Assembly (NCBI GenBank): GCA_946482365.1
Contig: CAMLQY010000046.1
Span: forward strand, 1 to 10,322
Length of the DNA stretch: 10,322 nucleotides
Direction: 5' to 3'
Source: an uncultured Actinomycetes bacterium
GTDB taxonomy: Bacteria > Actinomycetota > Thermoleophilia > Solirubrobacterales > 70-9
Shown here in pieces: positions 3,155 through 5,315 of the stretch; within the stretch, counting starts at the first letter, position 1, and the number at the start of each line of letters is the position of its first letter. Under the pieces are notes generated by a model. It had not been told where the DNA came from and searched no databases. It worked only from the letters and a program-made list of their open reading frames with translations. Position numbers and translations under genes: made by a program.

Positions 3155-4105
3155 TCAGGAACTGACCTTACTGGGTCGGTCCGCCTCGGCCGCAACCTCG
3201 ACGAAATCGAGCCACTCCAGGTACTCCTCGGCGCGCCCGTGCAGGGCGTCGTCGAGCTTTGCCTGGACCACCCGGGTGATCTCGCCCGGCTCGCCGATCG
3301 CGTGGTCGTCGATCTCCCGCACCGGCACCAGCTCGGCCGCGGTCCCCGTGAGGAAGACCTCGTCGGCGAGGTAGAGCTCGGCCCGGGCGATGTCGCGCTC
3401 CTCGACCTTGTAGCCGAGGTCGCCGGCGATCTGCATCACCGAGGCGCGCGTGATCCCGTCGAGGATGGCGTTGGAGTGGCCGGGCGTGGCGAGCACGCCG
3501 TCGCGGACCACGAAGACGTTCTCGCCCGAGCCCTCGGAGACGTGCCCGTGCTGGTCGAGCAGGATCGCCTCCTCGTAGCCGGCCTTCTGCGCCTCGGTCT
3601 TGGCCAGGATCGAGTTGAGGTACTGGCCGGCGGCCTTGGCGTGCGGGATCAGGCTCTCGCCGGAGATCGTCCGCCAGGAGGAGACGGTGGCGCGGATCCC
3701 GTGCTTCTGGCCCTCCTCGCCGAGGTACACGCCCCAGGGGAAGGCGGCGACGATGACGTCGATCGGGGCACCGGTCGCGTAGAGGCCGAGGTCGCCGTAG
3801 CCGCGGTAGGCGAGCGGGCGGATGTAGCAGGAGGCGAGCCCGTTGCGGCGTATCAGCTCCCGCGTCGCCGCAGCGAGCTCCTCGGTCGAGTAGGGAAGCT
3901 CGAAGTAGTAGAGCTCGGCGGACTTCGCCAGCCGGTTGAGGTGGTCGGCGTGCCTGAACACGGCCGGGCCGCGCTCGGTCTCATAGCAGCGGACGCCCTC
4001 GAAGACGCCGGTGCCGTAGTGCAGGCCGTGGGTGAGGACGTGCGTCTTGGCGTCCTCCCAGGCGACGAACTCGCCGTTCTGCCAGATCAGCTCCGCGGTC
4101 TCCAT
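3155..4105 (-). CDS. ilvE: Branched-chain amino acid aminotransferase
   Basis: IlvE transfers the amino group of glutamate to the 2-oxo acids of leucine, isoleucine and valine, using PLP. This 316-residue fold-type IV enzyme shows LIWQNGEFVAWEDAKTHVL (6-24), THGLHYGTGVFEGVRCY (25-41), HAKAAGQYLNS (155-165) with the likely Schiff-base lysine K157, and EGSGENVF (191-198) with the PLP-contacting glutamate E191. Length and order match E. coli IlvE (K159, E193 there). I chose ATG 4105 because homologues begin at the WxNGEF strand; the frame stays open to a GTG at 4150, but those extra 15 codons run through an arm of the inverted-repeat element. No good Shine-Dalgarno precedes the ATG: an AAGG lies 14 nt upstream, right after the element. 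It probably shares a transcript with leuB. Confidence 0.94.
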   Translation of the reverse strand: METAELIWQNGEFVAWEDAKTHVLTHGLHYGTGVFEGVRCYETERGPAVFRHADHLNRLAKSAELYYFELPYSTEELAAATRELIRRNGLASCYIRPLAYRGYGDLGLYATGAPIDVIVAAFPWGVYLGEEGQKHGIRATVSSWRTISGESLIPHAKAAGQYLNSILAKTEAQKAGYEEAILLDQHGHVSEGSGENVFVVRDGVLATPGHSNAILDGITRASVMQIAGDLGYKVEERDIARAELYLADEVFLTGTAAELVPVREIDDHAIGEPGEITRVVQAKLDDALHGRAEEYLEWLDFVEVAAEADRPSKVSS

Positions 4106-4125
4106 GGTCGCGAAGTATGCCTTAC

Positions 4126-4239
4126 GAGGCCGTCCCGGTAGGGGTTCCACTTAACTTTTTCGAGGATCGGCGATGGCTGGCGCTCGGACGAGCGCCCGCG
4201 AAAAAGTACAAGACGTTCCACCCCTACCGGGACGGCCTC
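4126..4239. mobile_element. Palindromic MITE-like element between leuB and ilvE
   Basis: The ends, 4126-4145 and 4220-4239, are perfect 20-bp inverted repeats (GAGGCCGTCCCGGTAGGGGT and its complement). Inside lie a second perfect inverted repeat of 9 bp (4154-4162 with 4199-4207, ACTTTTTCG/CGAAAAAGT) and a central 7-bp stem (4179-4185 with 4190-4196) with loop GGAC. GTTCCAC also occurs twice in the same direction, at 4144-4150 and 4215-4221. TAC flanks both ends (4123-4125, 4240-4242), as a 3-bp target duplication would. The outermost base supplies the third base of the leuB TAG; removing the element plus one TAC gives leuB a TAA stop and leaves 16 nt before the ilvE ATG. It encodes no protein. 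The alternative is a purely RNA-level hairpin that evolved in place. Confidence 0.6.
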
Positions 4240-5315
4240 TACGCGGACAGCTGAGCTAGGACGGCGTCGGTGATCTCGGCGGTGCCGATAGCTGTCTCTC
4301 CCCGGATGGCCAGGTCGGGGGTGCGCAGGCCGCTGTCCAGGACCGCGTCGACGGCGGACTCGATGCGGGTGGCGTCGTCGGGGCGGTCTAGGCCGTGGCG
4401 GAGCAGCATTGCCGCCGAGAGGAAGGTGGCGAGGGGGTTGGCAACGCCCTGGCCGGCGATGTCGGGGGCGGAGCCGTGGACGGGCTCGAAGAGGCCCGGC
4501 TCGCCCTCGGCGCCGAGGCTGGCGGAGGGCAGCATTCCCAGCGAGCCGGTCAGCATCGCCGACTCGTCGCTGAGGATGTCGCCGAAGAGGTTCTCGGTGA
4601 CGATCACGTCGAAGTCGGCCGGGCGGGAGACCAGCTGCATCGCGGCGTTGTCGACCAGCAGGTGGTCGAGCTCGACGCCTGGGTATTCCGGCGCGACCCG
4701 GCCGACGACCTCGCGCCAGAGGCGCGAGGTCTCCAGCACGTTCGCCTTGTCGACGGAGGTGAGGCGGGGCTTGCGGCCGGAGCCTGCCGCACGGCGTTGC
4801 GCGGCCTCGAAGCCGACCCTCGCGATCCGTTCGACTTCGGCGGCCGAGTACTCGCAGGTGTCGTGCGCCACCTCGCCGTCGCGACCGCTGTCGCCGAAGT
4901 AGATGCCGCCGGTCAGCTCGCGCACCACGAGCAGGTCGGTGCCGGCGATCACGTCGGGACGCAGCGGGCTGGCGCCGACCAGGGCCGGGCTGGGCCGGAC
5001 CGGACGCAGGTTGGCGTAGAGGCCCATCCCCTTGCGCAGGCCGAGCAGGCCCTGCTCCGGGCGCGGCGCGGCCGGGTCGGTGGTGTCCCACTTGGGACCG
5101 CCGACGGCCCCGAGCAGGACTGCGTCTGCGGCGCGGCAGGCGGCGAGAACCTCGTCGGTGAGCGCCGTGCCATGGGCGTCGATCGAGCAGCCGCCCATCA
5201 GGTGCTCGCTGAACTCAAACTCGCCGAGCGCCTCCAGCAGCCGGCGCGCGGCGGCGACGATCTCCGGGCCGATCCCGTCGCCGGGCAGCAGGACTATGCG
5301 GGGCACACCGCTCAC
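4239..5315 (-). CDS. leuB: 3-isopropylmalate dehydrogenase
   Basis: LeuB oxidises and decarboxylates 3-isopropylmalate with NAD+ to 4-methyl-2-oxopentanoate. Related enzymes also handle the 3-methylmalate made from citramalate, which matters because cimA is in the same locus. The 358-residue protein is full length and shows [10 protein letters not shown] (9-18), [10 protein letters not shown] (132-141), VDKANVL with the catalytic lysine K190, VDNAAMQLV (221-229) with D222, the signature [10 protein letters not shown] (242-251) with metal-binding D246 and D250, and the nucleotide loop HGSAPDIAG (280-288). The start is GTG 5315, which overlaps the methyltransferase TGA as GTGA, so coupling is likely. 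A second GTG at codon 4 is possible, and neither has a clear Shine-Dalgarno. The TAG stop uses the first base of the palindromic element; without the element the stop would be TAA. Confidence 0.96.

What the first reader, a model, noticed from the sequence alone, without database searches (positions are those of the whole stretch)
4123..4242. A 114-bp nested palindromic element appears to have inserted into the leuB stop codon
Seen: perfect 20-bp terminal inverted repeats, an inner perfect 9-bp pair, a central 7-bp hairpin, and TAC on both flanks. Deleting the element and one TAC gives GCG-TAA: leuB keeps the same last amino acid, gains a TAA stop, and ends 16 nt before the ilvE ATG, a typical operon gap. 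At present the gap is 133 nt and the element donates the G of the leuB TAG. No transposase is encoded, so a MITE mobilised in trans is the simplest reading. Inference: insertion into a stop codon without loss of either gene. The flank match is only 3 bp and could be chance.
Basis: partly seen in the sequence, partly recalled or inferred. Interest (0 to 1): 0.7.

Follow-up and report, generated by a model that had tools for sequence, protein, structure and literature searches.

The report
Repeated hairpins placed after stop codons
The DNA palindrome between two amino-acid synthesis genes belongs to a repeat family found in one small group of Solirubrobacterales bacteria; many copies sit just behind the end of a gene in one fixed direction, and their arms change in matched pairs so that the hairpin survives, which suggests a structural job at gene ends and not a fresh jumping-gene insertion.

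Summary
The palindrome is real and as described (4126-4239, perfect 20-bp arms). It is one copy of a dispersed family: 12 of 232 genomes searched in the order of G003 carry it, against 1 of 396 sampled from the phylum, the centre genome itself. I analysed 109 places, window included. The 'terminal inverted repeats' differ between copies and stay complementary: all 20 outer pairs show two-sided changes. What is conserved is an internal asymmetric motif (GTCTTGTACTTTTT / AAAAAGTTAAG). Target-site duplications are not supported (4 of 109, 1.6 expected); the one transposase family searched (PF01797) is absent. Many copies sit at the same gene junctions in different species. Where only one side abuts a stop codon it is the 3' side in 46 of 49. 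In-frame copies inside genes and the short leuB-ilvE junctions of relatives show that the family did spread. Best reading: an ERIC/RPE-like palindromic family, once mobile, now held as structured gene-end elements. The window's copy has the rarer orientation. Function is inferred, not shown.

The parts
4220..4239 (-). 5' arm of the element (element-sense strand is -), GAGGCCGTCCCGGTAGGGGT; its first base is the G of the leuB TAG
   Evidence: paired changes in all 20 columns
4199..4219 (-). conserved left core GGAACGTCTTGTACTTTTTCG
   Evidence: alignments A1 and A2
4163..4198 (-). variable centre with a short hairpin (4179-4196)
   Evidence: centre poorly conserved
4146..4162 (-). conserved right core CGAAAAAGTTAAGTGGA
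4126..4145 (-). 3' arm, exact complement of the 5' arm
4124..4240 (-). whole match to covariance model R1, 108.3 bits; the other strand scores 46.0 (the window is a member of the model's training set)
4239..5315 (-). leuB; its TAG shares one base with the element
   Evidence: name by homology as given in the finding
3155..4105 (-). ilvE, starts 18 nt beyond the end of the model match

Best explanation
The feature is one member of a clade-restricted family of about 115-bp dispersed palindromes. The family spread by some past copying process, as RPE and ERIC elements did, and most copies are now held just behind stop codons at the ends of transcription units. There the long hairpin probably acts as a gene-end element: blocking or ending read-through, or fixing the mRNA 3' end through a nuclease or other factor that reads the conserved asymmetric internal loop. 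Shown: family, covarying arms, conserved core, position, preferred orientation, sites shared between species. Inferred: the function, the factor, and how it once moved. The window's copy lies in the rarer orientation between two co-directional genes, so it may be a stray or non-functional copy.
For: 12 of 50 genomes in the family of G003 carry copies. 34 copies: 244 two-sided changes over 34 pairs against 70 in shuffles, all 20 outer pairs affected; 87 copies: 722 against 179. Shared sites: 168 arm columns changed on both sides to another Watson-Crick pair, 60 on one side, of 600 compared. Of 109 places 64 have a stop codon within 45 nt of the 3' side, and of the 49 with a stop at one side only 46 have it there. 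Element-bearing gene pairs are convergent in 29 of 71 against 8 of 173 pairs without (Fisher p 1.4e-11). Co-directional junctions: antisense 30, sense 10. Some wide convergent junctions carry two copies, one behind each gene (L174, L177, L087). Gene ends without the element lack such stems: 8 of 94 have a perfect stem of 10 bp or more.
Against: No U-tract follows the hairpin, so it is no canonical intrinsic terminator. In 42 of 109 places no stop was found within 45 nt of either side, among them intragenic and apparently divergent ones. Copies inside genes keep almost as good arms (2.1 non-Watson-Crick of 20 in 9 copies, 1.6 behind stops in 64), which a gene-end function does not predict. G.U exceeds A.C in the element-sense strand (61 to 39, p 0.035, mostly from G004), the strand opposite to the mRNA of the abutting gene. 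The window's own copy has the minority orientation. Genes were called by my own script; shared sites are counted more than once.
Confidence: 0.5

Rival explanations
1. A selfish, non-autonomous palindromic element (MITE- or RPE-like) without host function. Its place and orientation behind stop codons come from target preference and from removal of harmful insertions, and its arms stay complementary through template-switch correction of palindromes.
For: In-frame copies inside genes; copies 93% identical at different sites of G009; centres resemble other copies of the same genome slightly more than the shared-site partner; arms kept paired inside genes too.
Against: No conserved ends, no duplication, no PF01797, no gene-carrying version seen; sites and core kept across species; orientation 46 to 3.
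Confidence: 0.33
2. A strand-specific single-stranded hairpin made from the element-sense strand: an independent small RNA, or an ssDNA recombination site placed behind genes somewhat as integron attC sites are.
For: Fixed G.U in one core pair (82 of 87) and G.U over A.C elsewhere; fixed side behind stop codons; stem sequence free, structure fixed. GTTAAGC fits the attC R' box GTTRRRY (recalled).
Against: Watson-Crick pairs make up 1932 of 2080 outer cells, so wobble is hardly used; attC has no 20-bp perfect arms outside its boxes (recalled); no integrase or promoter was searched for.
Confidence: 0.1
3. One reading: a recent MITE insertion into the leuB stop codon with a 3-bp TAC duplication.
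For: TAC on both sides; shorter element-free junctions in relatives.
Against: No family-wide duplication; a probable relic of the arms at the same junction in L003; the closest copy among 90 others compared is only 80% identical.
Confidence: 0.05

Closest known systems
Rickettsia palindromic elements (RPE)
   Same: Short palindromes spread over a genome, with in-frame copies inside genes (PMC10969869, passages)
   Different: RPEs are described as about 150 bp and placed largely inside ORFs; here gene ends dominate, arms covary, the core differs and the hosts are unrelated
ERIC, QMITE2 and Correia elements
   Same: Palindromic repeats of about this size; QMITE2 mostly in 3' untranslated regions, ERIC at gene 3' ends altering mRNA, Correia cut by RNase III (PMC10969869, passages)
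   Different: Their repeats are recognised by sequence (recalled); here the stem sequence is free and an internal asymmetric loop is fixed, with a preferred orientation to the stop codon
REP sequences with RAYT (Y1) transposases
   Same: Gene-end palindromes, sometimes in inverted pairs (recalled)
   Different: REPs are about 35 bp (recalled); no PF01797 in any of the 12 genomes
Intrinsic transcription terminators
   Same: Hairpin directly behind stop codons, enriched between convergent genes
   Different: No trailing U-tract, a 20-bp stem with a large conserved inner part, and dispersed homologous copies

Membership tests
MITE | Multi-copy, short, without a transposase gene | tested here: met
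   about 115 bp
MITE | Terminal inverted repeats conserved between copies (and shared with a partner IS) | tested here: not met
   Arms differ between copies with paired changes in all 20 columns; no partner IS identified, but only PF01797 was searched
MITE | Target-site duplications | tested here: not met
   3 bp: 4 of 109, 1.6 expected; 4-6 bp: no excess; old copies could have lost them
Rickettsia palindromic elements | In-frame copies inside genes | tested here: met
   P0001 in G003; P0002 in G003, G001, G321; P0004 site in G003, G004, G001, G269
Rickettsia palindromic elements | Sequence homology to RPE families | not tested
   No RPE sequence was compared
REP / RAYT | Y1 transposase of the RAYT type in the genome | tested here: not met
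   0 of 12 genomes; control positive in 5 of 14 known genomes
Rfam RNA family | Score above a family's gathering cut-off | tested here: not met
   Only MIR820 (23.5 of 196 bits) and mir-629 (36.4 of 72) at element places
Intrinsic terminator | Hairpin followed by a U-tract | tested here: not met
   Flanking bases of the copies printed show no T-run on the gene strand; read by eye, no statistic
Intrinsic terminator | Stops or defines transcript ends | not testable with these tools
   No expression data
Integron attC | R and L boxes at the hairpin base and an IntI integrase | not tested
   Only a recalled likeness of one box; no integrase search, no attC model on hand

The most novel reading that the evidence does not exclude
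A new class of orientation-preferring, structure-defined gene-end element: a hairpin whose stem sequence is free to change in paired steps while an asymmetric internal loop is fixed for a dedicated factor (nuclease, termination factor or recombinase). It is carried by one family of Solirubrobacterales and spread by copying to many gene ends.
Probability: 0.3. Interest if true: 0.75.

Novelty: new variant of a known kind. Interest (0 to 1): 0.55.

Why it matters
Bacterial palindromic repeats are usually recognised by conserved ends (recalled). Here the ends are free to change as long as they pair, the inside is fixed, and the element keeps a preferred orientation to stop codons across species. 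That makes 'selfish repeat or gene-end device' directly testable, offers about a hundred natural replicates, and gives a clean case for how near-perfect palindromes change with few visible intermediates. I found no description in print in the searches, which cover one open-access library only.

Tried and rejected
Fresh MITE with TAC duplication: rejected as the main reading. Core inserted into the loop of pre-existing terminators, so that arms would be host DNA: rejected, because many copies in several genomes share CCGGTAGGGG in the arms and gene ends without the element mostly lack such stems (8 of 94 with 10 bp or more). REP/RAYT: rejected. Phage or plasmid carriage: exact arm and core patterns are absent from the viral contigs, and plasmids gave only short matches at E of 1 or more. 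tRNA remnants beside copies: none in the 24 loci scanned. RNA or DNA by G.U against A.C: only a weak hint. Loss of pairing inside genes as a test of function: no clear difference. A first run of that script stopped half-way on a missing field after printing the shared-site counts; the rest was repeated. Papers: searches 29 and 62-65 seen as listings; of PMC10969869 only passages were read.

Rows dropped: one search gave 171 matches; I kept 109 and left out 62 that by eye were weaker reverse-strand echoes of the same places. L091 was fetched but has no model match. 5 of 109 were left out of the arm count. Alignment A1 used 34 copies, leaving out L074, L080 and one other short-armed or odd copy by an arm-length rule. 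A2 holds only the 87 matches at E up to 1e-9 from 77 of the 94 sources. L014's junction was misread by my script because of N's and is not used. L266 (G005) was not printed because its motif did not match; G005's lack of the GT4 insert rests.

Full report
The window holds a 114-bp palindrome at 4126-4239 with perfect 20-bp arms, an inner 9-bp pair and a central hairpin; the leuB TAG takes its G from the element, and the gap to ilvE is 133 nt. The arm is found twice against 0.01 expected in shuffles, and the fold is 6 standard deviations below shuffles. Rfam gives only matches far below the gathering score at element places.

The window's own genome is not held. Its ilvE protein placed it among Solirubrobacterales MAGs (best 82% in L001 and L002, 80% in L003; L002's record is labelled Acidobacteria). 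Searching the element as DNA in 18 such genomes gave 32 matches at E up to 1e-3 in G001, G003, G004, G005, G006 and G011 (72-94% identical, the most identical ones short pieces). From 34 copies I made alignment A1 and covariance model R1. R1 finds the family in 12 of 50 genomes of the family of G003 (E up to 1e-3), 12 of 232 of its order (E up to 1e-4), 8 of 299 sampled from its class, one of them a weak single match (G122), and 1 of 396 sampled from its phylum, the centre itself. Searches over more than 40 genomes used stricter filters and scored a capped number of candidates, so weak copies and copy numbers are lower bounds.

Anatomy. In A1 every one of the 20 outer pairs shows changes on both sides; over the whole 34-pair structure 244 cells do, against 70 in shuffles. 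In the larger A2 (87 copies) it is 722 against 179, with 96.6% of cells paired (A2 was aligned to the model and leans towards it). A check that does not start from the model: the 15-nt left core alone, with up to one mismatch, occurs 70 times in seven genomes against 2 for the reversed pattern. Held against, 68 of these lie in model copies (one of them a 27.5-bit match); G321:C76:7735 and G004:C28:61578 do not and were not followed. Inside the arms lie a small purine loop, the asymmetric strand pair GTCTTGT / TAA, an inner stem usually ACTTTTTCG / CGAAAAAGT, and a variable centre. In copies of G009 and G011 the inner stem itself is replaced in a paired way (ACCCT... / ...AGGGT).

Not an ordinary MITE. 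The arms of a transposase-recognised element should be conserved; here they are not. There is no duplication signal over 109 copies. PF01797 is absent from all 12 genomes while the control works. No gene-carrying version was seen, but only the left core was searched for on its own, and no other transposase family was searched.

Resident at shared sites. Comparison of neighbouring proteins shows the same junctions occupied in several species, for example L078/L089/L090, L159/L072/L063, L162/L082/L084, L050/L189 and L187/L177, with neighbours 74-100% identical. Over 30 pairs from 12 shared sites (600 columns) 344 arm columns are unchanged, 168 changed on both sides to another Watson-Crick pair, 60 changed on one side and 28 otherwise (pairs within one site are not independent). 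Arms resemble the shared-site partner more than other copies of the partner genome in 50 of 66 ordered comparisons; the centre beats the mean of same-genome copies in only 26 of 66, a sign of some homogenisation or spread within genomes. G009 has copies 93% identical at different sites (91 copies compared).

Placement. Genes were called with a codon-usage script trained on seven window genes. Of 109 places a stop codon lies within 45 nt of the 3' side only in 46, of both sides in 18, of the 5' side only in 3, of neither in 42. Gene pairs with an element between them are convergent in 29 of 71, against 8 of 173 pairs without (shared sites count more than once). In co-directional junctions the element is antisense to the genes in 30 and sense in 10. 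Some wide convergent junctions hold two copies back to back, one behind each gene (L174, L177, L087 and one pair in L175). Read along the gene, the usual order is stop codon, then the reverse complement of the element. The window is an exception: the leuB stop is at the 5' edge and ilvE follows in the same direction; the other nine sense copies have the stop 47-530 nt away.

Copies inside genes. The GT4-type protein P0001 of G003 holds the element in-frame between FSPA and VVFVGK; the 29 homologues aligned and five more do not show it, though their linkers vary in length. The double-ABC protein P0002 holds it at the same linker in G003, G001 and G321 (67.7, 58.9 and 76.6 bits). At the P0004 site the peptide SAPADI(V/A)PGLL upstream and the frame downstream are kept on both sides of the element in G003, G004, G001 and G269. 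P0003 (40.6 bits) is less certain. Sense copies inside genes use one frame, reading CTF in the left and KL in the right core. The GT4 and ABC cases need an insertion event, so the family has been mobile. Gene names here are from recalled motifs, not from a family search.

leuB-ilvE in relatives. Of the 20 loci L001-L020, adjacent junctions without the element are 60 (L006), 20 (L008), 21 (L010), 14 (L012), 100 (L016), 99 (L017, L018), 82 (L019) and 86 nt (L020); in six (L001, L004, L005, L007, L011, L015) about 870-950 nt separate the genes; in three leuB was not found nearby; L014 was misread. The model finds no copy in any of the 20. L003 (76 nt) begins its junction, right after the TAG, with GGCCTATCCCGGTAGGG and has a partial pairing partner; the model scores it 10.2 bits with filters off, E 0.024 for 401 bases. 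CCGGTAGGG occurs only three other times outside elements in 447,594 bases of loci. I read this as a worn relic, so the element probably entered before the window and L003 lineages parted.

Mechanism (inferred). A long, near-perfect hairpin directly behind stop codons, enriched between convergent genes and with a preferred orientation, works most like a gene-end device: an end-point or block for transcription, or a processing site that sets the mRNA 3' end. The lack of a U-tract speaks against a classical intrinsic terminator. Pairing that is clean on both strands (1932 Watson-Crick, 61 G.U, 39 A.C and 48 other of 2080 cells) would suit a device read from both sides, or a DNA-level palindrome. 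The faint G.U excess in the element-sense strand (p 0.035, mostly from G004) points away from an mRNA-strand role and keeps a strand-specific RNA or ssDNA site open. Copies inside genes keep nearly as good arms, which fits a DNA-level correction or youth better than selection at gene ends. How arms change in pairs with few intermediates is unsolved.

Place among known things. In behaviour it lies between RPE (in-frame copies) and ERIC or QMITE2-type repeats (gene 3' ends), described in PMC10969869, of which I saw only passages. It fails the conserved-TIR and duplication criteria of a MITE, so I do not file it as one. I rate it a new variant of the known kind 'dispersed bacterial palindromic repeat'.

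Noticed in passing
window 4113-4121 (- strand); upstream of ilvE in L001-L007, L009, L011, L015: A kept GGCATA(C/A)TT-like box ends about 8-10 nt before the ilvE ATG, as for a -10 element of a nearly leaderless transcript; in the window it lies just downstream of the element.
   Followed up: no
L001, L004, L005, L007, L011, L015: About 870-950 nt separate leuB and ilvE in these relatives, with another sequence in between.
   Followed up: no
L075 1988-2237; G004:C28:61578 beside 61444-61557: Two element copies in tandem 20 bp apart, and a left core right beside a full copy.
   Followed up: partly
L178 after 1835, L189 after 3917, L145 near 282: Other perfect 12-14 bp stems right behind genes, without the conserved core; possibly other repeat families.
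   Followed up: no
L155 1193-1332: A c-di-AMP riboswitch (RF00379, 68.6 bits) in a locus that also holds an element copy.
   Followed up: no
L047 678-797 and 964-1084: Two back-to-back copies lie downstream of a 23S-5S rRNA end in G011 (for the rRNA, for the copies).
   Followed up: no
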